From contig JADCBP010000009.1 in assembly GCA_020253445.1 (NCBI GenBank), positions 124,001 through 188,000 on the forward strand: a stretch of DNA of 64,000 bases, read 5' to 3'. Position numbers and translations under genes: made by a program. The number at the start of each line of letters is the position of its first letter. The first letter of the stretch is position 1. Below, piece after piece: positions 3,638 to 18,910 of the stretch. Origin of the DNA: Methylobacterium sp. (GTDB taxonomy: Bacteria; Pseudomonadota; Alphaproteobacteria; Rhizobiales; Beijerinckiaceae). Below the pieces are notes generated by a model. That model worked only from the letters and a program-made list of their open reading frames with translations. It was not told where the DNA came from and made no database searches.

Positions 3638-4684
3638 TCAGACCGGCAGCACCATGGCCGCGCCGGGCTCGATCTCGAGCCGCACATGCGCGCCATTCGG
3701 CAGGATGGCCTCGCGCACGGGCCGCACGATCAGCATCTCACCCCAGGGCGCATCGACGACATATTCGCGCGAGGGGCCGATATAGGCCTGCCGGCGGATC
3801 TTCAGCGGGCTCGCGGCATCCACCGCAAGGCTGGCGCGATCGGGCCGGAAGGCCAGCGTCTTCGCATTTTCGGGCACGCTCACCGCGCCGAGTTCCAGCT
3901 TGGTGCCCCCGGCGGTGAATGTGACCTTGCCCGCCTTCTCGCTGAAGGTGCCGTCGATCAGGTTCGCCTCGCCAATGAAATCCGCGAGGAAGCGGGTCTT
4001 CGGCCTCTCGTAAAGATCGGCCGGCGTGCCTTCCTGCGCGATCACGGCATTGTCCATCACGATCACCTTGTCGGATACGGCGAGCGCTTCCTCCTGATCG
4101 TGGGTGACGTAGAGCACGGTGAGCCCAAGGCGCTGCTGCAGGTCACGGATGTCATCGCGCACCTTGCGACGAAGCTTCGCATCGAGGTTCGAGAGGGGTT
4201 CGTCGAAGAGCAGCACGGAGGGTTCGAGCACGATGGCGCGCGCCACCGCGACGCGCTGCTGCTGGCCACCCGAAAGTTCGGAGGGAAGGCGCTTCTCGAA
4301 GCCCTTCAGGCCCACGAGGCCCAGCTTCTCGATGGCCATCGCCTCGGCATCCTTCCTGGAGGCGCCGGAGACGAGCGGGCCATACATCACATTATCCAGC
4401 ACATTCATGTGCGGAAACAGCGCGTAGGACTGGAAGACCATGGAGACATCGCGTTCGGCCGCGCCCAGTTGCGTCACGTTCTCGTTGCCGATCCGGATCG
4501 TGCCTTCGGAAGCGAGTTCGAGGCCTGCCACGAGGCGCAAAGTCGTCGTCTTGCCGCAGCCCGAGGGGCCGAGCAACGTGACAAGCTGGCCCGCCTCCAC
4601 CTTGAAGGAGACGTCGCGCACGGCGGTGACCTGCCCGTAGCGCTTGAAAACATGGATGAACTCGACGCTTGCGGCTTTCGCCAT
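3638..4684 (-). CDS. ABC importer ATPase, FbpC/AfuC/PotA type with TOBE domain
   Basis: Nucleotide-binding subunit of an ABC importer, 348 residues. Walker A GPSGCGKT is at 39-46, the Q-loop Gln at 85, signature LSGGQQQR at 137-144, Walker B VLLFDEP at 157-163 and the H-loop His at 195. A C-terminal TOBE region of about 100 residues follows, as in FbpC, PotA and AfuC. It is the third gene of an SBP-permease-ATPase unit, 12 bp after the two-domain permease. This subfamily serves ferric iron, putrescine, 2-aminoethylphosphonate, thiamine or sugar phosphates; the substrate must be judged from the binding protein and neighbours, which here suggest a phosphorylated polyol. Confidence 0.93.
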   Translation of the reverse strand: MAKAASVEFIHVFKRYGQVTAVRDVSFKVEAGQLVTLLGPSGCGKTTTLRLVAGLELASEGTIRIGNENVTQLGAAERDVSMVFQSYALFPHMNVLDNVMYGPLVSGASRKDAEAMAIEKLGLVGLKGFEKRLPSELSGGQQQRVAVARAIVLEPSVLLFDEPLSNLDAKLRRKVRDDIRDLQQRLGLTVLYVTHDQEEALAVSDKVIVMDNAVIAQEGTPADLYERPKTRFLADFIGEANLIDGTFSEKAGKVTFTAGGTKLELGAVSVPENAKTLAFRPDRASLAVDAASPLKIRRQAYIGPSREYVVDAPWGEMLIVRPVREAILPNGAHVRLEIEPGAAMVLPV

Positions 4685-4696
4685 CCTGAAAAACTC

Positions 4697-6829
4697 CTAG
4701 CGGCCGACCGAGACAGGCGCGGGCGCGTTGCCCGGAACCTGCCGGCGGCCGATCTTGCGTTCGCCGATGCCGATCTGGATCGCCAGAACAACGACCAGCA
4801 TGAAAATGATGAGCAGCGAGGAATAGGCAATCGCCAGCGGGTATTCGCCGGCATCCACGCGGTTCACGATGTAAGCCGTCGCCATGTTGTATTTCGCGGT
4901 GACGAGAAACACGATCGCGCTGACCGAGGTCATGGCATGGACGAAGGAAAAGACCAGGGTGGCGATGATCGCGGGCTTCAGCAGCGGCAGGGTCACGCGG
5001 CGCACGGTCGTGCCGGTGGATGCGCCGAGAGTGGTCGAGGCTTCATCCAGCGATTTGTCGATCTGGCTCAGGGCTGCGATGCCGGCGCGCACGCCCACGG
5101 GCATGTTGCGGAACACGAAGCAGATGATGAGGATCAGCCCCGTGCCCGTGAGTTCCAGCGGGGCCACGTTGAAGGCCACGATATAGGCGACGCCGATCAC
5201 GGTGCCCGGAATGGCGAAAGCCAGCATGGTGATGAATTCGAAGGTCCGCCTTCCAACGAAATCATGCCGAACCAGCACATAGGCCGTGAGAATGCCGATG
5301 ATCGTCGTGAGCGGTGCTGCGATCGCGGAGACCTGCACGGTGGTGATGAAGCTGTCCCAGGCGGACCCCGCGAGAAACAGCCCGTGCTGTGTCCATTCGA
5401 TGGCGAAGCCCGTGTGGAAATGCTCGAAGGTCGGCTGCATCGCGCCGCGGCCGATATCCTGCACGAAGCCACCGACCACGATGATTCCGTAGATGAGGAT
5501 CGTGAGAATAACCCATGGAATAACAACGGAAAGCGTGCCGATGCGCACCGCTTTCGGAAGCGGCAGCGGCTGGCCGGAATCGCCCTTGCCGGTCACGGTC
5601 ACGTAGCTCTTCCTGCCCAGCCAGGCGAGCTGCATCCAGAAGGCGGTGAGGGTGAGGGCGAGCAGGATCACCGCGAGGATCGCCGCGCGTCCCGGATCAT
5701 GCTGCGCGCCGGCCACTGCGAAGAAGATCTTGGTCGAGAGCACCTCGAACGACCCGCCGAGCACCAGCGGGTTGCCGAAATCCGCGAGGCTTTCCACGAA
5801 GCCGAGCAGGATCGAGGCGGCGATCGCGGGTCTCAGAAGCGGCCAGGTCACAGTGCGGAAGGTCACCCAGCGGGAGGCGCGAAGGGTCTGCGCGGCTTCC
5901 TCCAGCGAGGGCGAGATGCCCTGCAGGGCGCCGCGCAGGATCATGTAGGAGAGCGGCGTCTGCGACAGCACCTGCGCAATCAGCACGCCCGGCAGCCCAT
6001 AGATCCAGCGCGAGCGCGGGATGTTGAGCCAGTTGTCCAGAAACGTCGTGATGATGCCGGTGCGGCCGAACAGCACCACGAGCGCCAAAGCGATCACGAA
6101 GGGCGGGGTGATGATCGGCAGCACCGAGAGCGCATCGAAGATGCGCGTGTTCTTCAGCCCGCCCCGCTGCGCCAGAAGCGCGAAGGCAAGGCCGAGAAAG
6201 GTCGAGATCACGCCCGCGAGCACGCCGAGCAGCACGGTGTTCGGCACCACGCCGCAGGAGGCGCTGGAATAGAAACAGGCGAGAGCCCAGACATCCGGCG
6301 CCGTGAGCCGCGCCCAGAACAGTGTGAGATCGAGGTTTCCCGCCTTGTCGAGAAAGGCGCTGCCCAGCACTTTCGCCACCGGGAAGAACACGAAGGTCAG
6401 CACCAGCGCGAGGATGGTGACGGTCGTGGTCGCGACCCAGCGATCGGCCTTGAAAGCCCCGAGGCTCGCGAGCGCGCGGGTGCCCTGCAGCAGAAGCGCC
6501 GAGGCAATCAACCCCGCACCGAGGCCGTGGGCCAGAAGCGGCCGGCCATCGATCAGATTTCCGTGGAAGCCGTAGAGGATCATCCAGAAAAGGCCGGAGC
6601 CGGCCAGAGCGAGCCGCATTCCGGCGGTTGTCACGCCCTGCCGCGCAAGGAAGGCGGCGGCAAGGCTTGCGATAACCGGAAGCAGGAAGGCCCAGCGGCC
6701 ATCGAGCAGCCAGCCGAGGCCGGAGCGCAGATCGCCGACAAAGGCAAAGGGAAGCAGCAGAAACGCGATCGAAGCGACCCCGGCCGCGCCAAGATCCACA
6801 ATCCCCCGATCCGCCCGTCTGCGTTGCAT
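4697..6829 (-). CDS. ABC importer permease, duplicated FbpB/AfuB type
   Basis: Inner-membrane subunit of 710 residues with two tandem BPD_transp_1 domains, as in FbpB and AfuB. Each half contains an EAA-type coupling loop: EEAAQTLRASRWVTF in the first domain and DEASTTLGASTGTTV in the second, each followed by a PLL-PAI segment. The N-terminal roughly 180 residues carry additional hydrophobic segments before the first transport domain. It is translated between the binding protein (about 140 bp upstream) and the ATPase. One fused polypeptide provides both halves of the pore, so the importer would need one permease and a dimer of the ATPase. Confidence 0.92.
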   Translation of the reverse strand: MQRRRADRGIVDLGAAGVASIAFLLLPFAFVGDLRSGLGWLLDGRWAFLLPVIASLAAAFLARQGVTTAGMRLALAGSGLFWMILYGFHGNLIDGRPLLAHGLGAGLIASALLLQGTRALASLGAFKADRWVATTTVTILALVLTFVFFPVAKVLGSAFLDKAGNLDLTLFWARLTAPDVWALACFYSSASCGVVPNTVLLGVLAGVISTFLGLAFALLAQRGGLKNTRIFDALSVLPIITPPFVIALALVVLFGRTGIITTFLDNWLNIPRSRWIYGLPGVLIAQVLSQTPLSYMILRGALQGISPSLEEAAQTLRASRWVTFRTVTWPLLRPAIAASILLGFVESLADFGNPLVLGGSFEVLSTKIFFAVAGAQHDPGRAAILAVILLALTLTAFWMQLAWLGRKSYVTVTGKGDSGQPLPLPKAVRIGTLSVVIPWVILTILIYGIIVVGGFVQDIGRGAMQPTFEHFHTGFAIEWTQHGLFLAGSAWDSFITTVQVSAIAAPLTTIIGILTAYVLVRHDFVGRRTFEFITMLAFAIPGTVIGVAYIVAFNVAPLELTGTGLILIICFVFRNMPVGVRAGIAALSQIDKSLDEASTTLGASTGTTVRRVTLPLLKPAIIATLVFSFVHAMTSVSAIVFLVTAKYNMATAYIVNRVDAGEYPLAIAYSSLLIIFMLVVVLAIQIGIGERKIGRRQVPGNAPAPVSVGR

Positions 6830-6971
6830 GCCGCTCCCCCGAGCCTGTTCTTTCAGGTGTCATTCACGGCGCCGGCATGGGCCAGCGGACGGAAATCGGG
6901 TATTCCACCCACGATCCCGGATTCCCGCGCGCTGCTGCCGCATCGTCGGGAATGACAGAAGCGATGTCGCC

Positions 6972-8012
6972 TCAGCGGCGCGGCGCGTTGCGCACCTCGG
7001 CATCCCATTTCTGCAGGATGCGCGTGCGCTCGGCGGAGGAGCCATATTTCGCGAAGTTGTAATCGATCAGCTTGATTTCCGAGAGGTTCGGCGATTCCTT
7101 GGGCACTTCCGAGGCCTTGTTGGAAGGCACCTGGTAGCTCTTCGCAGACAGCGCGATCCTCTGCGCTTCAGGGGTCAGAGCCCAATCGTAGAACTTCTTG
7201 GCGTTCTCCATGTTCTTGGCGCCCTTGATGATCGACATCGAGCCGATCTCGTAGCCCGTGCCTTCGCAAGGGGCCACGATCTGCACCGGCGCGCCGCTCA
7301 CGGCCTGGGTCACGGCGTCATGCAGGAAGGTGATGCCGATCAGGCTTTCGCCGGTCGCGGCCGCGCGCGCCGGGGCGGCGCCCGACTTGGTATACTGATT
7401 GACGTTCTTGTGCATGGCCTTCATCAGTTCGAAGGCCTTGTCCTCGCCGAAGAGCTGGATGAGCGTCGCCACCTTGGTATAGGCCGTGCCGGAGGAATTC
7501 GGGTCCGCGACCTGCACCTCGTCCTTGTATTCCGGCTTTGCAAGGTCCGCCCAGCATTTGGGTTCGGGCAGCTTCTTGCGGGCGATCTGCTCCTTGTTGA
7601 AGGAGAAGCCCAGCGCGCCGGCATAGATGCCGACGGTCTTGAAGCCGGATTGTTCGGCCTGCTTCACCGCCCAGGGCAGAAGCTCGCCGAGCTTGGCGGA
7701 TTTATACGGCTCGGTGAGGTTCTCCTCGGCCGCCTGCAGATGCGGATCGCCCGTGCCGCCCCACCACACATCGCCGCGCGGATTGGCGGCTTCGGCCTTG
7801 ATCTGGGCATAGGTCTCGCCGGACGACTTGCGGGTCATCGCGACCTTGATGCCCGTGGCGCGCTCGAAAGCCTGCGCCATCGGGCGGCACCATTCCTCCT
7901 GCACCGAGCAATAGAGCACCAGCTCACCCTGAGCGGCGGCGGGCGATGGGGCCAGACCGCCCATGGCGGTGGCGGCAAGAAGCGCAAGCGCGAAAGAACG
8001 GCGTGTCGCCAT
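6972..8012 (-). CDS. Periplasmic substrate-binding protein of the FbpA/AfuA-like importer
   Basis: Exported binding protein of 346 residues. It begins with a signal peptide with two arginines (ATRRS) and a hydrophobic stretch ending at Ala-Gln near residue 28. The body is a type II periplasmic fold (LVLYCSVQEEWCRPM; ISLxFxKEQI-like region; DPNSSGTAYT). The adjacent tyrosines that bind iron in FbpA are not seen. The corresponding region reads ITFLHDAVTQA, followed by a Glu in PCEGTGYEIG. The His-Asp and Glu recall the sugar-phosphate ligands I remember for AfuA, though this parallel is from memory and not aligned. Gene context (inositol phosphatase, inositol dehydrogenase) suggests a phosphorylated inositol or polyol as ligand. 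2-Aminoethylphosphonate is an alternative. Confidence 0.88.
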   Translation of the reverse strand: MATRRSFALALLAATAMGGLAPSPAAAQGELVLYCSVQEEWCRPMAQAFERATGIKVAMTRKSSGETYAQIKAEAANPRGDVWWGGTGDPHLQAAEENLTEPYKSAKLGELLPWAVKQAEQSGFKTVGIYAGALGFSFNKEQIARKKLPEPKCWADLAKPEYKDEVQVADPNSSGTAYTKVATLIQLFGEDKAFELMKAMHKNVNQYTKSGAAPARAAATGESLIGITFLHDAVTQAVSGAPVQIVAPCEGTGYEIGSMSIIKGAKNMENAKKFYDWALTPEAQRIALSAKSYQVPSNKASEVPKESPNLSEIKLIDYNFAKYGSSAERTRILQKWDAEVRNAPRR

Positions 8013-8061
8013 CGTGGTTCTCCTCCCCTGGATCCGGTGGCGGTTTGTAACCCGCTCCCCG

Positions 8062-8077
8062 TGTCACAGATGTGACA
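8062..8077. promoter_or_regulatory. 16-bp perfect palindrome upstream of the importer binding-protein gene
   Basis: TGTCACAGATGTGACA is a perfect inverted repeat (7 + 2 + 7) located 50-65 bases before the ATG of the minus-strand binding-protein gene. Its length, symmetry and position fit an operator for a dimeric repressor. The regulator is not identifiable from the window. Confidence 0.55.
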
Positions 8078-8122
8078 TTTGCCAGCTAACTTATCGTCTT
8101 CCAGAATTCCGTCAATGGGTTT

Positions 8123-8137
8123 TGTAGCATTCCTACA
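8123..8137. promoter_or_regulatory. Inverted repeat TGTAG-N5-CTACA upstream of the importer genes
   Basis: TGTAG and CTACA form a 5-bp inverted repeat with a 5-base spacer, 46 bp from the neighbouring 16-bp palindrome. The surrounding sequence is AT-rich compared with the flanking genes, as expected for a promoter region. It could be a second operator (GntR-type sites have this kind of shape) or chance. Confidence 0.35.
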
Positions 8138-8159
8138 TTTTATGACGAATTCATACACT

Positions 8160-8963
8160 TCAGGCCAGCGCGATCCCGCTTTCGCGCGAGACGATCTCGG
8201 CGATTCCCGGTGCCGCGACGAGAATGGGGTTGCCCTCCGTGATCCAGTTGCCGGAGCAGAATGCGTTGATGCGGCATCCCGCCTCGCCCGCGATCACGAG
8301 CCCGGCCGCGACATCCCATGAATTGATATGCGTCTCGATATAGGCATCCGTGCGCCCGTTCGCCGCATGGGCGACGCCCAGCGCGCCCGAGGCCGAACGC
8401 TTCACGCTGGAACCTTCCGCGAAGAGCCGCGTGACGATCCCCAGATATTCCTCGGTGGGCCGGCGGGTGGACCAGCCGCATTCGATGGTCGAGCGCCTCA
8501 GGTCGGTATTGGTCGAGCAGCGGATCGGCACGCCGTTCAGCGTCGCGCCCCCACCCCGCCGCGCGAGCCACATCTCGCCCAGGGCCGGGGCATGGATCAG
8601 CCCCAGTTCGGGCCGGCCGTTCAGCACGAAGCCGATCGAAACGCACCATTGGCGGTCGCCGCGCGCAAAATTCGAGGTGCCATCGATCGGATCGATGATC
8701 CAGAGCCGCTCGGATGCGCCGCCGCCCTGTTCCTCGCCCATCACCGCGTCTCCGGGAAAGGCTTCGGCGATCATCGCGCGGAATTCCCTCTCCACCGTGC
8801 CATCGGCGATAGTGAGCCAGTCCTGGAAACCCTTCATCGAGATTTCGAGCGCATCGGTCCGTCCGAAATAGGAGAGGGCCGTTTCCCCCAGTTTCAGCGC
8901 CATGCCATGCGCGGCATGATAGCGGGCGGAGAGCATCGCGTTGTCGGTCATCGGATCGGCCAT
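8160..8963 (-). CDS. Inositol-monophosphatase-family phosphatase
   Basis: Mg2+-dependent phosphatase of 267 residues. The three metal-site motifs are present: GEEQGG (Glu77/78), WIIDPIDGTSNF (90-99) and WDVAAGLVIAGEAG near the C-terminus. Relatives hydrolyse myo-inositol phosphates, histidinol phosphate, 3'-phosphoadenosine phosphate or fructose-1,6-bisphosphate. The motif-3 region and the link to iolG favour an inositol or polyol phosphate. I chose the ATG at 8963 over the TTG at 8966: it overlaps the iolG stop as TGATG, implying translational coupling. The importer genes follow after a 147-bp gap that holds two palindromes. It may be a dedicated catabolic enzyme rather than the housekeeping SuhB. 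Confidence 0.88.
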   Translation of the reverse strand: MADPMTDNAMLSARYHAAHGMALKLGETALSYFGRTDALEISMKGFQDWLTIADGTVEREFRAMIAEAFPGDAVMGEEQGGGASERLWIIDPIDGTSNFARGDRQWCVSIGFVLNGRPELGLIHAPALGEMWLARRGGGATLNGVPIRCSTNTDLRRSTIECGWSTRRPTEEYLGIVTRLFAEGSSVKRSASGALGVAHAANGRTDAYIETHINSWDVAAGLVIAGEAGCRINAFCSGNWITEGNPILVAAPGIAEIVSRESGIALA

Positions 8964-9955
8964 CAATAGACGGGGCGCACGGGCTTGCCGGTCTGCGCGG
9001 ATTCGGTTGCGGCATCGGCGAGCACCTGGGCCTTCAGCCCGTCAATGCCCGAGGGCGATGGCTGGATCCCCTTCACCATGCAATCGAGAAACGCCGCGAG
9101 TTCGGCGCGATAGGCGGCGGCATAGCGCTCGAGGAAGAAGGGCAGGACGGGATCGGCGCGAAAGCCCCGGGCATCGGCGGTCTCCACCGTGGTCAGCGGC
9201 ACGTTCCGGGCCCGCAACATGCCCTTTTCGCCGTGCACCTCGAAGCGCTGGTCGTAGCCGTAGCTCGCGCGGCGGGAATTCGAGATCTGCGCGATCTTGC
9301 CGGATGCCGTTTTCAACAGGACGGCGGCGGTATCGACATCGCCCGCTTGCCCGATCGCCGGATCGACGAGGCAGGAGGCCACTGCATGCACCTCCACCGG
9401 GTCTTCGCCGAGAAGGAAGCGGGCCATGTCGAGATCATGGATCATCATGTCGCGGAACAGCCCGCCCGAACGCCTCACATATTCCACCGGCGGCGGACCG
9501 GGATCGCGCGAGAGAATCGTGACCAGCTCGATCTTGCCGACATCACCGGCCACGAGGCGGCGCCTGGCTTCCGCGAAATTGGGGTCGAACCGGCGGTTGA
9601 AGCCGATCATCAGCGGCTTGCCCGAGACTTCGACCGTCTTGAGGCAGGCCCGGATGCGATCGGAGGAGAGGTCCACCGGTTTTTCGCAGAAAACGGCCTT
9701 TCCGGCCTTCACGGCTTCCTCGATGAAATCGGCGTGGGTGTCGGTGGGCGAACAGATCATCACGCCGGCAATGGCCGGGTCCGCCAGCATCGCCTCGCGG
9801 CTGGTGGCCTTGGTGCCGAGTTCGTTGGCAAGGCTCTCCGCCGCCGGGGCGAGCGCGTCGCTCACCGCCAGCAATCGGGCCCCCTTCGAAGCCGCGACAT
9901 TTCCCGCGTGGATGCGCCCGATGCGCCCCGCGCCGATGATACCCAGTCCGATCAC
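8963..9955 (-). CDS. iolG: Gfo/Idh/MocA oxidoreductase, probable inositol 2-dehydrogenase
   Basis: NAD(P)-dependent dehydrogenase of 330 residues. The N-terminal Rossmann motif GIIGAGRIGRIHAGN begins five residues after the chosen GTG start at 9955, as in IolG proteins; a GGGGA ribosome-binding site precedes it. The catalytic EKP lysine lies near residue 95, and the second-domain motif MMIHDLDMARFLLG carries the conserved Asp and His of inositol dehydrogenases. The reaction expected is myo- (or scyllo-)inositol to the 2-keto-inosose. It is the first gene of the minus-strand unit and overlaps the phosphatase gene. Specificity within Gfo/Idh/MocA cannot be settled by eye, but the adjacent divergent iolC supports inositol. 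Confidence 0.85.
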   Translation of the reverse strand: MIGLGIIGAGRIGRIHAGNVAASKGARLLAVSDALAPAAESLANELGTKATSREAMLADPAIAGVMICSPTDTHADFIEEAVKAGKAVFCEKPVDLSSDRIRACLKTVEVSGKPLMIGFNRRFDPNFAEARRRLVAGDVGKIELVTILSRDPGPPPVEYVRRSGGLFRDMMIHDLDMARFLLGEDPVEVHAVASCLVDPAIGQAGDVDTAAVLLKTASGKIAQISNSRRASYGYDQRFEVHGEKGMLRARNVPLTTVETADARGFRADPVLPFFLERYAAAYRAELAAFLDCMVKGIQPSPSGIDGLKAQVLADAATESAQTGKPVRPVY

Positions 9956-10082
9956 GAAAATTTTTCCCCGCAGGCTGACGATCTGTTTCGGTTTTTCCGG
10001 AAGACTAGAATTGGAACGGGACTCACGCAATGCTCGCGCGCCGATAATCTCAGCCGGCAAAGGGCGCGAATGGGGAAACACG
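9956..10082. promoter_or_regulatory. Divergent promoter region between iolG and the SDR-iolC unit
   Basis: This 127-bp gap must hold the promoters of both divergent units. It contains the 8-bp palindrome TTCCGGAA at 9995-10002 and a further GGAA about 10 bases on. Inositol regulators of rhizobia are reported to use GGAA/TTCC-type half-sites, so this could be an operator. No clear -35/-10 pair was found. Confidence 0.35.
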
Positions 10083-10895
10083 ATGGCTGCAGGCGCGGGT
10101 CGGCTTTCAGGCAGGATCGCAGTGGTGACGGGTGCGACGCAGGGACTGGGCGAAGCCATCGCCCGCGCCTTTGCGGCAGCGGGTGCCGCCGGGCTTTGCC
10201 TGACCGGGCGAAACGCCGCCCGTGGCGCGCGCATCCGGGATGAACTCGCCCGCCAGGGAACGGCTTCGATCTTCGTGCAGGCTGATCTTTCGAGGATGGA
10301 CGATGTCCGCTCGGTGATCGCGGCGGCGGATCACCGGTTCGGCCGGGTGGATGTGCTGGTGAACGCGGCGGGGCTGACCGATCGCGGCACCATCTTCGAC
10401 ACCACGCAGGAGCGGTTTGACGAACTCTTCGCGGTCAATGTTCGCGCGCCGTTCTTCCTCGCGCAGGATGCCGTGACGATCATGGCGCGCGAGAGGATCG
10501 CAGGCTCGATCATCAATATCCAGTCGATGTCCGCGCATGGCGGGCAGCCCTTCCTTTCAGCCTATTCCTCCACGAAGGGCGCGCTGGCGACGCTGACGCG
10601 CAACCTCGCCCATGCGCTGGTTAAGCACCGGATTCGCGTCAACGGCCTCAATATCGGCTGGATGCACACGCCCGGCGAGGAGCGCGTGATGCGCCTCTAC
10701 CATGGCGCGCAGGATGGCTGGCTGGAACAGGCGGTGAAGGATCGGCCCTTCGGTCGTCTCATCAGCCCCGAGGAGGTGGCGCGGGCCTGCCTCTATCTGG
10801 CGAGCGACGAATCCGGCCTGATGACCGGCTCGAATATCGATTTTGATCAAACCATTGTCGGGATCGGCGCCGATCCCCTCGAACCGGGGATTTAG
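10083..10895 (+). CDS. Short-chain dehydrogenase/reductase of the inositol locus
   Basis: Classical SDR of 270 residues. The cofactor motif TGATQGLGEA is near residue 20, NAAG near 95, the catalytic Ser in INIQSMSAHG near 143 and YSSTK near 156-160. The ATG at 10083 follows GGGGA at a proper distance. The gene diverges from iolG and ends one base before the iolC ATG, so the two are co-transcribed. In inositol loci such SDRs may oxidise isomeric inositols or inosose derivatives; the exact substrate cannot be read from the sequence. Confidence 0.85.
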   Translation: MAAGAGRLSGRIAVVTGATQGLGEAIARAFAAAGAAGLCLTGRNAARGARIRDELARQGTASIFVQADLSRMDDVRSVIAAADHRFGRVDVLVNAAGLTDRGTIFDTTQERFDELFAVNVRAPFFLAQDAVTIMARERIAGSIINIQSMSAHGGQPFLSAYSSTKGALATLTRNLAHALVKHRIRVNGLNIGWMHTPGEERVMRLYHGAQDGWLEQAVKDRPFGRLISPEEVARACLYLASDESGLMTGSNIDFDQTIVGIGADPLEPGI

Positions 10896-10896
10896 G

Positions 10897-12747
10897 ATGA
10901 AGGATCTCGATCTCGTTACCATCGGCCGCTCTTCGGTGGATCTCTATGGCCAGCAGATCGGCGGACGGCTGGAGGATATGGCGAGTTTCGTGAAGGCGGT
11001 CGGGGGCTGTCCGGCCAACATCGCCATCGGCGCGGCCCGTCTCGGTTTGAAAACCGCGCTGATTTCCCGCGTCGGTGACGAGGCGATGGGCCGCTTCATC
11101 CGCGAGCAGCTCCTGCGCGAGGGTGTCTCGGTCGACGGCCTTGCGACCGATCCGCATCGCCTGACCGCGCTGGTGCTGCTTGGCGTGCGCGACCAGGAAA
11201 CCTTCCCGCTGATCTTCTACCGCACGGATTGCGCCGATGCCGCGCTCGACGAGAGCGATATCACCCGCGATCTCATCGCCCGCTCGCGTGCCGTGCTGGT
11301 CACCGGCACGCATTTCGCCAAGGCGAACAGCGATGCCGCGCAGAAGAAGGCCATTCGCCTCGCGCGGGAAACCGGCGCGAAAGTGATCCTCGACATCGAT
11401 TACCGCCCCAATCTCTGGGGGCTGGCCGGGCATGGGGCAGGGGATAGACGTTACATCCCGTCCGATCAGGTCAGTGCCCATCTCGCGGGCATCCTGCCGG
11501 ATTGCGATCTGATCGTCGGCACGGAGGAGGAACTCCACATCGCCGGCGGCACCACGGATACGATCGCGGCATTGAAGGCCATCCGCAAGCTCGCGCCCGG
11601 GGCGCTGATCGTGGCAAAGCGCGGCGCCGAGGGCTGCGCGGCTTTCCCCGAGGCCATCCCGGCGAGCCTCGACGAGGGCATTCGCGGGCCGGGCTTCCCG
11701 GTCGAGGTTTACAATGTGCTGGGCGCGGGCGATGCCTTCATGGCCGGTTTCCTCTCGGGCTGGCTGCGCGACGCGCCGCTCGAAACCTGCTGCACCTATG
11801 CGAATGCCTGCGGCGCCATGGCGGTTTCGCGCCTGCTGTGCTCGCCCGAATATCCCGGCACGAAGGAATTGATGCATTTCCTCGCGCATGGCTCAAGCCA
11901 CCATGCCTTGCGTTTCGATGCCGTGCTCAATCACCTGCACCATGCCACGACACGTCGCCCCGTGCCGCGGAAGCTTGCGATCCTCTCGATTGATCACGGC
12001 TTCCAGGATTTCGAGCAATATGGCAAGGGCCGGCATGTCGATGCGGGGCGCGTCGCCTATTTCAAGACGCTGGCGGTGAAGGCGGCCGCGGAAGCCGGCG
12101 CGCAATTCAAGGAGCGAAACGGGCTCGGCGTCGGCATGTTCCTCGACGGCATGCTCGGCCGGGAAGCCTTGTTCCGAGCCGAGGATCACGATTTCTGGAT
12201 CGCCCGGCAGCTGCCGCATGGCGAGCGCGTCCGCCTCACGGAATGGCCAATGCGGCAGGTTGCGAAGCTCATCGCCAATGGCCGCTCGGATGCGCGCACG
12301 CCCTACAGCCAGCATGTCTCCGAGATCCGGCAGGTCTTCGCGGCCGCGCAGGCCCTGGGCCGGGAAGTGCTGATCGAGGCGCTGCCACCCGAGGGGGAAA
12401 CCACGGCGATGATGCTCGAGCGCCTCTATGGCGAGGGGCTGAAGGCCGATTACTGGCTCATCGAATTGCAGCACGATGCCGCTGCCTGGGCTGCCATCGA
12501 TGCGGTGATCGGGGCGCAGGACCCGCTCTGCCGGGGCGTGATCGTGATTGCCCGCAACGCCCAATCCGGCCCGGACCTGAAGAAGGCGGGTCGCCAGCCG
12601 CGTGTGATGGGCTTCGTGGGCGGGCGCTCGGTCTTCGGCGTGGCCTTCCGGCTCTGGCTGGGCGGGGATATCGATGATGTCGCGGCCATTACCCTCATGA
12701 AGAAGCAGTTGCAGCATTTTGCGGCCGACTTCGCGGGTGAAGGCTGA
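10897..12747 (+). CDS. iolC: 5-dehydro-2-deoxygluconokinase fused to a DUF2090 domain
   Basis: Two-domain protein of 616 residues. Residues 1 to about 320 are a PfkB-family sugar kinase with GGCPANIAIGAARLG and the catalytic-base motif GAGDAFMAGFL. From about 330 onward the protein is a DUF2090 domain, related to the IolJ-type aldolase fold, starting at PRKLAILSIDHGFQDF. IolC phosphorylates 2-deoxy-5-keto-D-gluconate; the second domain is thought to cleave the product to malonate semialdehyde and DHAP. This fusion is common in proteobacterial inositol clusters. The ATG at 10897 is one base after the SDR stop. The usual partners iolD, iolE and iolB are not downstream, so either they lie elsewhere or the pathway here is different. 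Confidence 0.92.
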   Translation: MKDLDLVTIGRSSVDLYGQQIGGRLEDMASFVKAVGGCPANIAIGAARLGLKTALISRVGDEAMGRFIREQLLREGVSVDGLATDPHRLTALVLLGVRDQETFPLIFYRTDCADAALDESDITRDLIARSRAVLVTGTHFAKANSDAAQKKAIRLARETGAKVILDIDYRPNLWGLAGHGAGDRRYIPSDQVSAHLAGILPDCDLIVGTEEELHIAGGTTDTIAALKAIRKLAPGALIVAKRGAEGCAAFPEAIPASLDEGIRGPGFPVEVYNVLGAGDAFMAGFLSGWLRDAPLETCCTYANACGAMAVSRLLCSPEYPGTKELMHFLAHGSSHHALRFDAVLNHLHHATTRRPVPRKLAILSIDHGFQDFEQYGKGRHVDAGRVAYFKTLAVKAAAEAGAQFKERNGLGVGMFLDGMLGREALFRAEDHDFWIARQLPHGERVRLTEWPMRQVAKLIANGRSDARTPYSQHVSEIRQVFAAAQALGREVLIEALPPEGETTAMMLERLYGEGLKADYWLIELQHDAAAWAAIDAVIGAQDPLCRGVIVIARNAQSGPDLKKAGRQPRVMGFVGGRSVFGVAFRLWLGGDIDDVAAITLMKKQLQHFAADFAGEG

Positions 12748-13090
12748 ATCTCCGGGCCAGGCCATGCCGCTTCCGGTGGCGCAGCCTCTTCTGATGCATC
12801 GACGCCAGATACCCTCGACATGCATCGAGAACGATGTTCCGTTCGGGTGCCGCTCGATGCGTGCCGCGGGCGAGGAGATGGGGCTCTCCTTCGTGGAGCG
12901 CGGCAGCATCCTTGCGCGGCCGTGAGAGGATTCCGCGAGATTTCACCGGTTTTGGCTTAAAGGCTCCCTGTTCTCGACGATCTTGGTGAACCAGACGCTG
13001 CGAAACAGGCGCGTCATGGGCCGAGGTTTAGACCTTCCTTTGACCAGCCGGGCCTACACGATGCTCTCCCGCCAGAGTGAGGAGGCATCC
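12748..13090. other. Gap between iolC and the secreted hypothetical gene
   Basis: 343 bp without a convincing gene. An open frame at 12763-12925 (plus) could encode about 53 residues but has no good ribosome-binding site and no family I recognise. No iolD, iolE or iolB remnant was recognised. A good GAGGAGG site near the right edge belongs to the next gene. Confidence 0.5.
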
Positions 13091-14836
13091 ATGCCGTGGG
13101 TTCGGATATCGTGTTTGCGGAAACGCCTGGCCGCGCTGGGCTGCATTCTCGTGGGCCTTCCGAGCCTTTACGGTTTCCCGCCCCTGATCGCGGCCGATGA
13201 GCCTGCGCTCACGCTCCGCATCGATCTCAGTGATCGGTCGCGCTGGCGGGTGGAATGGAGGCAGGCGCAGGATACAAGGCTTCAGCGCCGTGACTGGCCG
13301 GAAGAGCCGTTCCTGCGTGAGGGGCTCGCACGCCTCGAACGCTTCTGGCCGGAGGCACCGCGTCAAGCCGCGCTGGGAGCGCGGACAACCGATCAGCTGC
13401 ATGATGGCGATGTCGCGCCGCGCCCATCCGCCCGGCAAGGCGCATTCTGGCTCAGCCCCTTGGCTGCCGGGCAGGGGCTCGACCAGACTTTCGCCTTTCC
13501 GCCCGAGATGGGCGGCGGCCAGGTGGTGATCGAGATTGTCGGCCATGCCGAAGGGATCGGCATCGAGTATAGTGGCCTGCGGCTGACTTCGCCGGTGATT
13601 CCCGGCCATGCGATCCGGCTCACGGGGCAGATCGCGACCACGCAGCACCGTTCGGGCGGAATGATCGGCGCGCTGCGTTTGCACCTTTCGAGCCATGCCA
13701 GCCCGGAGGCGCTGGCCGCGGCCATTCGCGCGCCATTCGATCTGCCGGGGCCGCCCATCACCGGGAAGCCCCCCATTCCCGATCGTGCGGAACTTGCGCG
13801 CCTCATGGCGTCGCTGGGTGCGCACGGACTGACCGGTTCCGGTTTCGCCCGGCCAGCCCCGGGCGGGAATGGCCCTGCATGGTCGCCGGAAGAACAGCGC
13901 GCGCTTGCGCCGCTGGAGCGCGCGATGCTGCTGCAGGGTGAAATCCTGCGCCGGGGCTGGACCAGCCATCTGGTGCTGTCGAACCGTCGCTCTCTTCCCG
14001 CGCTGACCCTGCGGCCGGCCTTCCTGTTCGACACGGTGATGGTCGAGGTGCCGCAGGCTCGGCTATTGCTCGATCCCTCGCGCCAGCTGCTGCTCGATTC
14101 CGATGTGCCGCACCCGGATCTCGGCGGAAAACACGCGCTGGTTCTTGCAGCATCCGGGCCGGAACTGCGCGCTTTCCGGATGCTCAGGCCCGCAGATCAG
14201 CATGTGGTCGTGCGGGCGGAACTCAGTCTCGATCATCACGGCACGATCAACGGCCATTCACGCACCGAAGTTCGAGGGGCGGCCCGCCCGATCCTCGCCA
14301 ATCTCACGCAGCGGCTGGGTCAACAGAATGATGCGATGCAGGATCTGCTGCGACGCCAGGGCCTTGTCGGCACGGCCCGGCTTGGGCCCAGCGAGCAGGA
14401 TGACAACAGCCTCAGTCAGCATCTGGAATTCCGGCTGGAGAACCGGATGCGCGGTTCGGTGCGGATGCCGATCCATGCCGGCGGCGGTCCGCGCCTCTAC
14501 CGGGCGCCGCTTTCGCACCTTCTGCCCGCCCTTCAGGCCGGCAGCGAGGTCGCCGTCACCTGCCAGCCGATGCGGCTCGAACAGGATATCGTGATGCATC
14601 TGCCCGATCGGCGCAGCCTGCTCGATGTTCCGCCCGATCTCCATGTGGAAGCAGCGCATTCGCGCTACCTGGCGATCTATCGCCTTGAATCGACGCATCT
14701 ATATATCCGTCGGCTCCTGGAACTCGATCCGCCTGGCGCAACGTGCCCGGCCGGACTGATCCGCGAGATGGCGCCCGTCCTGCGCGCGGCCGGGCTTGAT
14801 TTCGATCGCCCGCTCAATCTGCGTCTTTCGCCGTGA
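13091..14836 (+). CDS. Secreted protein with a degenerate transglutaminase-like (DUF3857-type) core
   Basis: Predicted export product of 581 residues with an N-terminal signal peptide (basic start, hydrophobic 11-27, cleavage near Ala-Ala-Asp at about 34-36). The ATG at 13091 follows a GAGGAGG site. The middle (about residues 275-370) resembles the tail of a transglutaminase fold as found in DUF3857 proteins: an Arg-Gly-Trp helix, then PALTLRPAFLFDTVMVEV, LLLDPSRQ, and DLGGKHALVLAASGPEL. The His that normally follows the Phe is replaced by Asp, and no catalytic Cys is apparent. This suggests a non-enzymatic or altered member. The C-terminal 200 residues look like the beta-rich domain of that family. 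It stands alone between iolC and a divergently read DUF2177 gene. Function unknown. Confidence 0.7.
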   Translation: MPWVRISCLRKRLAALGCILVGLPSLYGFPPLIAADEPALTLRIDLSDRSRWRVEWRQAQDTRLQRRDWPEEPFLREGLARLERFWPEAPRQAALGARTTDQLHDGDVAPRPSARQGAFWLSPLAAGQGLDQTFAFPPEMGGGQVVIEIVGHAEGIGIEYSGLRLTSPVIPGHAIRLTGQIATTQHRSGGMIGALRLHLSSHASPEALAAAIRAPFDLPGPPITGKPPIPDRAELARLMASLGAHGLTGSGFARPAPGGNGPAWSPEEQRALAPLERAMLLQGEILRRGWTSHLVLSNRRSLPALTLRPAFLFDTVMVEVPQARLLLDPSRQLLLDSDVPHPDLGGKHALVLAASGPELRAFRMLRPADQHVVVRAELSLDHHGTINGHSRTEVRGAARPILANLTQRLGQQNDAMQDLLRRQGLVGTARLGPSEQDDNSLSQHLEFRLENRMRGSVRMPIHAGGGPRLYRAPLSHLLPALQAGSEVAVTCQPMRLEQDIVMHLPDRRSLLDVPPDLHVEAAHSRYLAIYRLESTHLYIRRLLELDPPGATCPAGLIREMAPVLRAAGLDFDRPLNLRLSP

Positions 14837-15413: not shown

Positions 15414-15456
15414 GCCCGCTGCGTGCATGGCAGGGAAGCAGTTCTGCGGGATATCC

Positions 15457-16359
15457 ATGCTCCTTGATTTCACATCCCTTGCTGGCCGTGCACCATCCGT
15501 GGCCGCGGGCCATGATTTGCCCTCCTGCCTGCGTGTCGAGGCCCGCATGAGCCTCGCGGTGGGGCTGGAAGCGGGGCGTCTGCGCGTCACGGACCGGCAC
15601 GAGGCCGGGGCCTTCCGCTTTCGGATGCCCCGCCGCACGCCCGATGCGATCGAGGCGCTGATGGTGAATGTCGCCGGTGGGCTCGCGGGCGGGGACCGGC
15701 TGAGCCTCATGGCGCGAGCGGGAGAGGGCGCCTCGCTCGTCATTGGCAGTGCTGCGGCGGAGCGCATCTATCGCTCGGGTGGCGACACCACGCGGATATC
15801 CATCGCGCTTGCGGTCGAGCCCGGCGCGCGGCTTGTCTGGGTTCCGGCTGAAACGGTGATCCATCGAGGGGCACGCCTCACGCGCGAATTCTCGCTCTCG
15901 GTCGCGCCGGATGCGCGGCTTCTCGCGGGCGAGATGGTGCAGTTGGGCCGCGTCGCGAGCGGGGAGCGCTTCACGGCGGGGACATGGCGGGACCTCTGGC
16001 GCGTGCGGATCGGGGAACGGCTGGTGCTTGCCGAGGCGTTCCATCTCGAAGGCGAGCAGGCGCAGGCCGTCGGAAATCCCGGCGGATTGGCGGGTCATGC
16101 CTTTCTCGGAACCTTGCTGCTGGCCATGCCGGGAGCGGGTGAGCGCCTGCCGGCCATGCGCGCGGCGCTGACGGGCGAGCCCGGCGTCCATGCCGGTGCC
16201 ACCAGCCATTCCGGCCTTGTTCTTGCTCGCTTCCTGTCATCCGATGACGTGGCCCTGCGGCGTGCCTTCCTGGCGGCGCTGCGGGTTGCCGCCGGAGCCG
16301 ATCTGCCGCTCTCGCGGCTGCTTCTGTTGCAAGAGATGTCGAACCGAGGCCTTTCATGA
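15457..16359 (+). CDS. ureD: Urease accessory protein UreD (UreH)
   Basis: Scaffold protein of the UreD-UreF-UreG complex that loads nickel into apo-urease. The chosen start gives 300 residues, slightly longer than usual. Typical UreD features are the early [29 protein letters not shown] stretch (split here as [12 protein letters not shown] and [10 protein letters not shown]), ERIYRS and the EMVQLGR segment. The ATG at 15457 has GGGA five bases upstream; an in-frame ATG at 15427 lacks a site. It opens the urease operon and overlaps ureA by the ATGA of the ureA start. Confidence 0.93.
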
Positions 16360-16658
16360 ATCTCTCCCCGCGCGAAAAGGACAAGCTGATCGTCGCCATG
16401 GCTGCGATGGTTGCGCGCCGCAGGCTCGAACGCGGCGTGAAGCTCAACCACCCGGAGGCGGTTGCGCTCATCACCGATCACGTGGTGGAAGGCGCGCGCG
16501 ATGGCCGATCCGTGGCCGAACTCATGGAATCCGCCGCGAAAATCCTGACGCGCGCGCAAGTCATGCCGGGCATCGCCGAGATGATCCACGATGTTCAGGT
16601 GGAAGCCACTTTCCCGGACGGCACGAAACTCGTGACCGTGCACGAACCCATTCGCTGA
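16356..16658 (+). CDS. ureA: Urease subunit gamma
   Basis: Smallest structural subunit of urease, 100 residues, which is the family length. It starts [20 protein letters not shown] and contains [18 protein letters not shown] and the C-terminal [17 protein letters not shown], all diagnostic. Urease hydrolyses urea to ammonia and carbamate in the cytoplasm. The ATG overlaps the ureD stop, so translation is coupled. Confidence 0.98.
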
Positions 16659-16673
16659 AAAAGAGGCGTGTCG

Positions 16674-16904
16674 ATGAAAAAATATGCAGTTTGCCTTCTC
16701 ATGATGCTCCCGACGGCGGCGCTGGCCCACGCGGGTGACCACGGCCACTTCGATCTCGCCGCGCTGATCGCACATCTCTTCGAGCCGGATCACCTGTTCT
16801 TCGCGGCCGTGACGGTCATCGCGAGCATTCTCGCCTATCGCGCGGGGCGCCGGGCCGAGGCGCGTGCTCACCTGCGCAAGGATGCCGATCATGATCCCCG
16901 GTGA
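16674..16904 (+). CDS. Small exported/membrane protein between ureA and ureB
   Basis: 76 residues with a signal-like N-terminus ([18 protein letters not shown] then His-Ala-Gly), a His/Asp-rich stretch (HAGDHGHFD), a hydrophobic segment near 43-58 and a charged C-terminus rich in Arg, Ala and His. The ATG at 16674 follows AGAGG. It overlaps ureB by 14 bases, so it is part of the operon. The N-terminal His-Ala-Gly-Asp-His and [12 protein letters not shown] resemble the start of HupE/UreJ nickel permeases, which suggests a shortened relative or a metal-related envelope protein. Function is not established. Confidence 0.75.
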
Positions 16905-17196
16905 AATCATCACGAAGGACGGCGAGATCGAGATGAATGGCGGGCGCGCGACGCTCCGGCTTAACGTGGCCAATACGGGCACGCGGCCCATTCAGGTGGG
17001 CTCGCATTACCATTTCTTCGAGGCGAACGCCGCCCTGAAGTTCGAGCGCGAGAAGGCCAGGGGCTTCCGGCTCGATATTCCCGCCGGCACCGCCGTCCGC
17101 TTCGAGCCGGGCCAGACCCGCGAGGTCATGCTGGTGGAGATCGCCGGGAAACGCGAGGTCTACGGCTTTCGCGGGCTGGTGATGGGGAAGGTGTGA
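16891..17196 (+). CDS. ureB: Urease subunit beta
   Basis: Structural subunit of urease, 101 residues from the ATG at 16891. It begins [16 protein letters not shown], the normal start, and holds [17 protein letters not shown] and [15 protein letters not shown]. An ATG at 16882 would add three residues. It begins inside the preceding small gene and ends one base before ureC. The alpha, beta and gamma chains are separate, as in most bacteria other than Helicobacter. Confidence 0.97.
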
Positions 17197-17197
17197 C

Positions 17198-18910
<1,713 letters not shown>

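What the first reader, a model, noticed from the sequence alone, without database searches (positions are those of the whole stretch)
3638..12747. Candidate system for uptake and breakdown of a phosphorylated inositol
On the minus strand, iolG overlaps an inositol-phosphatase-like gene, and a three-gene importer of the FbpABC/AfuABC family follows; an SDR and an iolC-DUF2090 fusion diverge from them. AfuABC imports sugar phosphates, and the binding protein here lacks the adjacent tyrosines of iron-binding FbpA but has an HD...E pattern. The simplest model is import of inositol phosphate, then dephosphorylation, oxidation and kinase/aldolase steps. I know of no described system with this set, but I cannot search. 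The ordinary inositol importer (IatA/IatP or IolT type) is absent here.
Basis: partly seen in the sequence, partly recalled or inferred. Interest (0 to 1): 0.78.

Follow-up and report, generated by a model that had tools for sequence, protein, structure and literature searches.

The report
Probable inositol-phosphate import and breakdown cluster
A group of bacterial genes looks like a system that pulls a phosphate-carrying form of the sugar-like compound inositol into the cell, strips off the phosphate and uses the rest as food, which would be a so far undescribed way for bacteria to feed on a common form of organic phosphorus.

The parts
3638..4684 (-). ABC ATPase (AfuC/FbpC-like) with TOBE_2 domain
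   Evidence: under the NCBIfam cut-offs of the 25 models shown (best: ferric 348 of 496, PhnT2 339 of 458)
4697..6829 (-). fused two-domain permease, 710 aa
   Evidence: PhnU2 model 255.9 bits, cut-off 593.25
6972..8012 (-). periplasmic binding protein, AfuA family; ring residues H231, D232, E255 and phosphate residues S64, S174-T176 kept; Q38, S63 and A212 differ from AfuA
8160..8966 (-). IMPase-family phosphatase, TTG start, no signal sequence seen by eye; motif residues E78, D92, D95, T97, E211, D218 present
8963..9958 (-). iolG, inositol 2-dehydrogenase (start approximate); the only one over the family cut-off in this genome
10083..10895 (+). short-chain dehydrogenase, divergent from iolG; substrate unknown
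10897..12747 (+). iolC-DUF2090 fusion: 5-dehydro-2-deoxygluconokinase plus aldolase-like domain

Best explanation
The cluster imports a monophosphorylated inositol (or a close cyclitol monophosphate) intact through an AfuABC-type binding-protein-dependent ABC transporter. Inside the cell the IMPase-family enzyme removes the phosphate, IolG oxidises the freed inositol to the inosose, and IolE, IolD, IolB (encoded elsewhere in this genome) and the IolC-DUF2090 fusion take it to central metabolism; the SDR probably brings a second inositol isomer or inosose into the same route. Shown here: gene content, AfuA-type pocket, recurrent linkage and co-occurrence, presence of iolD/E/B, lack of a strong free-inositol importer candidate. 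Inferred: the ligand, the phosphatase substrate, the role of the SDR.
Against: Genome G287 of the same genus has a 79% identical binding protein with the same Q38+A212 pair but no iolD, no iolG over the cut-off (best 109 of 355 bits) and no IMPase match in its 19-kb locus. In L054, L055 and L058 the importer and an IMPase sit with zwf and edd, and these rows lie beside iol-linked ones in the tree, so importer plus IMPase alone does not mean inositol. AfuA does not bind glucose-1-phosphate, so a phosphate directly on the ring would need a reshaped pocket. S64 is Ala in 8 of 26 iol-linked proteins. In the order sample iol linkage is 5 of 60, not significant by itself against 0 of 39; the 80 named loci are biased towards the window. 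No IolR box lies before the window's own operon. Several families have iolD widely without the importer (f6 9 of 10, f11 6 of 7, f16 8 of 11, f24 8 of 9). No binding or growth data.
Confidence: 0.64

Rival explanations
1. The importer takes up hexose or heptose phosphates, as AfuABC does; the phosphatase is a general sugar phosphatase and the iol genes are neighbours because all serve plant- or plankton-derived carbon.
For: Ring and phosphate residues of AfuA are kept; relatives sit with zwf and edd in L054, L055, L058 and L099, or with HAD phosphatases and two-component systems; G287 has the importer without iolD or a proper iolG.
Against: Recurrent iol linkage in several orders, an iol-associated phosphatase clade, zwf-linked proteins differ at two pocket positions, IolR-type boxes before four importer operons, co-occurrence with iolD within families. 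G6P entering through Zwf would need no phosphatase.
Confidence: 0.2
2. The ligand is another phosphorylated feeder of the iol pathway: a scyllo-, chiro- or methyl-inositol phosphate, glycerophosphoinositol, or a mixture, with the SDR (or the extra GFO/IDH/MocA enzymes of L108 and L119) handling the isomer.
For: An SDR of at least 40% identity is in 18 of 80 loci, and an extra GFO/IDH/MocA gene follows iolG in L108 and L119.
Against: IolG here is over the cut-off of the inositol 2-dehydrogenase model; no phosphodiesterase was among the neighbours scanned, but only chosen neighbours were scanned.
Confidence: 0.1
3. The importer takes up free inositol; the phosphatase serves something else.
For: No strong free-inositol importer candidate was found elsewhere in the genome.
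Against: The phosphate-side residues S64 and S174-G175-T176 are kept, AfuA itself binds no free glucose or fructose, and a phosphatase accompanies 58 of 80 and 34 of 60 relatives.
Confidence: 0.05

Closest known systems
AfuABC of Actinobacillus pleuropneumoniae (hexose/heptose-phosphate importer; PMC4546632) and the G6P-binding VcA0625 (8x1a)
   Different: T11, G36 and I186 of the AfuA pocket are Q38, S63 and A212 here; genes linked to an IMPase-family phosphatase and to inositol catabolism; ligand not known
IbpA-IatA-IatP inositol importer with idhA/iol genes of Caulobacter and Sinorhizobium (PMC2597717)
   Same: Inositol catabolic genes with an ABC importer; an IolR-type box before the importer in some relatives
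   Different: The importer is from another ABC family and a phosphatase is included; no strong candidate for an IbpA-type protein in this genome
P5PA pyridoxal-phosphate importer (PMC8427247)
   Same: Homologous binding protein for a phosphorylated ring compound
   Different: P5PA has Ala at the positions of D206 and E229; the window protein keeps Asp and Glu
Bacterial myo-inositol (iol) pathway
   Same: IolG and IolC-DUF2090 here; IolD, IolE, IolB elsewhere in the genome
   Different: Entry would be through a phosphate ester rather than free inositol

Membership tests
AfuA-type sugar-phosphate binding proteins | Sequence and fold relationship to AfuA | tested here: met
AfuA-type sugar-phosphate binding proteins | His205, Asp206, Glu229 (each needed for G6P binding) | tested here: met
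   H231, D232, E255; kept in 26 of 26 iol-linked proteins
AfuA-type sugar-phosphate binding proteins | Phosphate residues Ser37 and Thr150 | tested here: met
   S64 and T176 in the window; S64 is Ala in 8 of 26 iol-linked proteins
AfuA-type sugar-phosphate binding proteins | Further pocket residues Thr11, Gly36, Ile186 | tested here: not met
   Q38, S63, A212
AfuA-type sugar-phosphate binding proteins | Binds G6P, F6P or S7P | not testable with these tools
   no binding assay
FbpA ferric iron binding proteins | Adjacent tyrosine pair | tested here: not met
2-aminoethylphosphonate importers (PhnS2/PhnT2/PhnU2) | NCBIfam equivalog cut-offs | tested here: not met
   phnS2 232.4 of 392.75; PhnT2 338.6 of 457.7; PhnU2 255.9 of 593.25
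P5PA pyridoxal-phosphate binding proteins | Ala at the Asp206 and Glu229 positions | tested here: not met
   Asp and Glu in the window
IMPase family phosphatases | PF00459 and the metal-binding motif | tested here: met
   177.7 bits, cut-off 27; motif residues kept (the motif itself is recalled)
IMPase family phosphatases | Activity on inositol monophosphates | not testable with these tools
   the best named models, HisN 142.6 of 275 and inositol-1-monophosphatase 129.8 of 332, are both under cut-off
iol pathway | IolG, IolC, IolD, IolE, IolB over curated cut-offs | tested here: met
iol pathway | IolA (malonate-semialdehyde dehydrogenase) | not tested
   not searched
IbpA-IatA-IatP inositol importer | Binding protein of the PF13407 type (type recalled) | tested here: not met
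   the window binding protein matches SBP_bac_6, 11, 8 and 1 only

The most novel reading that the evidence does not exclude
A dedicated proteobacterial system for taking up inositol monophosphates intact and using them as carbon (and phosphate) source: an AfuABC-type importer with a retuned pocket, its own clade of IMPase, and the iol pathway, present in Hyphomicrobiales, Acetobacterales and Burkholderiales. It would add a cytoplasmic route to the breakdown of phytate- and phosphoinositide-derived organic phosphorus.
Probability: 0.58. Interest if true: 0.76.

Novelty: new variant of a known kind. Interest (0 to 1): 0.64.

Why it matters
Inositol phosphates are among the most abundant organic phosphorus compounds in soils (general knowledge), and their use by bacteria is usually explained by secreted phytases and phosphatases followed by uptake of free inositol (general knowledge). 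An importer for the phosphorylated form would change how carbon and phosphorus from these compounds are thought to be shared between cells, would correct naming of such binding proteins as iron or phosphonate transporters, and would show how the AfuA pocket is retuned between ligands. The gene set is in cultured, named strains, so it can be tested.

Tried and rejected
Iron and aminoethylphosphonate import: rejected on NCBIfam cut-offs, pocket residues and the ranking of folds. Pyridoxal phosphate: rejected on D232 and E255. Making inositol from imported G6P: no Ino1 family match in the genome. A phosphate exporter as supporting neighbour (Na/Pi transporter with PhoU domain beside L147 and L153): near full-length matches lie beside 10 of 80 named loci but also 3 of 39 controls (and weak or partial ones beside 3 more), so it tells little. 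IolR box before the window's operon: not found. Foldseek 'pdb' search was not obtained; VIA-align was used instead. The fewest changes of iol linkage on the binding-protein tree are 14; this was not tested against shuffled labels. The six Sugar_tr matches (best 96.1 bits) and the weak fifth PF13407 match were not followed; three other PF13407 matches were taken as LacI-type regulators by reading their translations. The script had a strand error; its numbers are not used and it was redone.

Literature: listings with the starts of abstracts for the ten searches (three of them and also 83 returned no paper); PMC4546632 passages and one section; PMC8427247 passages; PMC2597717 passages; PMC8812569 passages. 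By titles and abstract starts, none of the listed papers describes an inositol-phosphate ABC importer; the library holds open-licence PubMed Central papers only.

Full report
What is there. On the minus strand, in order of transcription, are iolG (about 9958-8963), an IMPase-family phosphatase (8966-8160, four bases of overlap with iolG), a periplasmic binding protein (8012-6972), a fused two-domain permease (6829-4697) and an ABC ATPase (4684-3638). On the plus strand an SDR (about 10083-10895) and an IolC-DUF2090 fusion (about 10897-12747) point away. The flanking genes (EamA, SelO, NadC on one side; an unassigned frame and a urease cluster on the other) show no tie to it.

The rest of the pathway. 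The window lies in a 3.28 Mb genome of 18 contigs. The most similar binding protein in a named genome is 96% identical, in a Beijerinckiaceae assembly. The genome has iolD (946 bits, cut-off 715), iolE (361, cut-off 290) and iolB (352, cut-off 205) side by side on contig 1 at about 104.8-108.3 kb. Of nine genes of that 18-kb stretch that I scanned, iolD and iolE included, the only transporter-like one is an EamA-type gene about 5 kb upstream. The window's iolG is the only one over its cut-off; the next match has 102 bits against 355. IolA was not searched. For free-inositol importers: of five PF13407 matches the strongest is XylF (417 bits, cut-off 390), three look like LacI regulators (by eye), and one weak match was not followed; the best of six PF00083 matches has 96 bits. 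So no strong candidate of these two types was found, which is not proof of absence. No Ino1 match is present. There are four further IMPase-family genes, 32-46% identical to the window's over the parts aligned, so the window's copy is an extra one.

Which relatives keep which genes. Among 297 genomes of the order, 64 have a binding protein of at least 45% identity (72 matches); below that comes a gap and a second group at 39% or less in that table (78 matches listed; the list was cut). I took 60 loci of the first group (59 of the 64 genomes, one genome with two loci, window included; flanks about 8 kb, less where contigs end; G014, G089, G094, G180 and G296 were left out) and 39 of the 78 listed loci of the second group as control. 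With the same thresholds the IMPase is in 34 of 60 and iol genes in 5 of 60; in the controls 0 of 39 and 0 of 39. Fisher gives 2e-10 for the IMPase and only 0.15 for iol. This set is biased towards the window and shares records with the first (for example L174 with L046, L113 with L042, L114 with L044, judged by equal contig lengths). The iol-linked loci come from Beijerinckiaceae, Bosea kin, Bradyrhizobium, Microvirga, Hyphomicrobiaceae, Acetobacterales (Roseomonas, Falsiroseomonas, Neoroseomonas, Asaia) and Burkholderiales, many of them metagenome assemblies. Full sets of iolB, E, D, C, SDR, G, IMPase and importer lie together in L104, L105, L147, L155 and L168.

Genome-level association. 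iolD (E up to 1e-150) is in 51 of the 64 importer genomes and 58 of the other 233 (odds ratio 11.8); genomes with only the second group of binding proteins have it in 12 of 45, the remaining 188 in 46. G137 counts as lacking it although a piece of iolD stands at the contig edge of its locus L069. To allow for kinship I permuted importer presence within the 21 families that have it (178 genomes, family labels): observed 51, mean 40.7, one of 20,000 draws reached 51. This controls for family, not for finer kinship.

Three finer signals. First, in a quick tree of 93 phosphatases (one outlying row, L181, and rows outside 230-340 residues left out) the window's enzyme is in a clade of 25 with SH-aLRT 100; 19 of the 25 are from iol-linked loci, against 5 of 68 outside. 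Rows from shared records count twice in this. Second, the pocket pair Q38 with A212 is in 24 of 26 iol-linked binding proteins, 0 of 4 zwf-linked and 38 of 116 others; in one clade of eight (support 95) the zwf-linked L054, L055 and L058 (Gly, Ser) differ at both places from L057, L059, L067, L069 and L173 (Gln, Ala). For this count the second binding protein of L103 and an outlying L170 row were left out. Third, an exact GGAA-N6-TTCC box, the motif tied to IolR control in Caulobacter (PMC2597717, passages), lies 96 to 108 bases before the first gene of the importer operon in 4 of 27 iol-linked loci (L045, L153, L155, L168) and in 1 of 113 others (at -259 in L071) (Fisher 0.005; shared records not removed). 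In L155 that operon begins with the phosphatase. The window has no such box.

Mechanism. The phosphatase starts without a signal sequence (by eye) and keeps the metal motif and a Glu (E211) that, as I recall, touches the inositol ring in animal IMPase; it is Glu in 24 of 24 iol-linked and 66 of 70 other rows, so it does not set the iol-linked ones apart. The simplest order is import of the phosphate ester, cytoplasmic hydrolysis, oxidation by IolG and the known iol steps. The recurrent SDR (18 of 80 loci; nearest solved relative 4nim, labelled versicolorin reductase) or, in L108 and L119, a second GFO/IDH/MocA enzyme after iolG suggests entry of a second isomer.

Results against. G287, same genus, has a 79% identical binding protein with the same Q38+A212 pair, but no iolD, no iolG over the cut-off and no IMPase match at the locus. 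Importer plus IMPase also stand beside zwf and edd in three loci, and zwf and edd stand beside a 45% identical paralogue in G082, whose other copy is iol-linked (L045). So the family as a whole looks like importers of phosphorylated carbohydrates, and the inositol link marks part of it. AfuA does not bind glucose-1-phosphate, so a ring-bound phosphate asks for a changed pocket; the three changed positions may be that change, which is untested.

Verdict. I hold the inositol-phosphate reading at 0.64 and a hexose-phosphate reading at 0.2. The importer works like AfuABC, and its binding protein belongs to the AfuA family by sequence and fold, with part of the pocket changed. The kind of system is known; the coupling of such an importer with its own phosphatase to the inositol pathway was in none of the papers listed by ten searches, which cover open-licence PubMed Central papers only.

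Noticed in passing
L103 0.6k-5.1k: The nearest relative carries a second AfuABC-type set (binding protein 56% identical) on the other side of its iolC fusion; none was seen there in the window.
   Followed up: no
L079, L080, L081, L082, L083, L085, L086: Two AfuA-like binding-protein genes in tandem before one permease and ATPase; in L082, L085 and L086 one of the two has Met-Glu instead of His-Asp in the ring site.
   Followed up: partly
L054, L055, L058, L099: AfuA-like importer beside zwf and edd, suggesting glucose-6-phosphate uptake feeding the Entner-Doudoroff route in these bacteria.
   Followed up: partly
L054, L067, L079, L173 (scanned); L055, L057, L058, L080, L081, L083, L092-L098 (by clustering): Sensor kinases (HAMP/PAS, some hybrid) and/or OmpR-type response regulators stand beside many of the importers; they may sense extracellular phosphorylated sugars.
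   Followed up: no
L147 14490-16202 and L153 14419-16128: Na/Pi transporter with PhoU domain directly after the importer operon in two Bosea-type genomes; could export surplus phosphate.
   Followed up: partly
L108 8016-9044, L119 8085-9101: A second GFO/IDH/MocA dehydrogenase follows iolG, before the phosphatase, in Burkholderiales assemblies, where other loci have the SDR.
   Followed up: partly
window 15427-18910: Urease gene cluster (urease alpha subunit 1052 bits; the frames before it look by eye like accessory and small-subunit genes).
   Followed up: no
window 12983-14836 (+): Long open frame with no Pfam match next to the iolC fusion.
   Followed up: no
L063 9578-10331: The phosphatase match next to this importer is split over two pieces in different frames, so the gene looks broken in that genome.
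   Followed up: no
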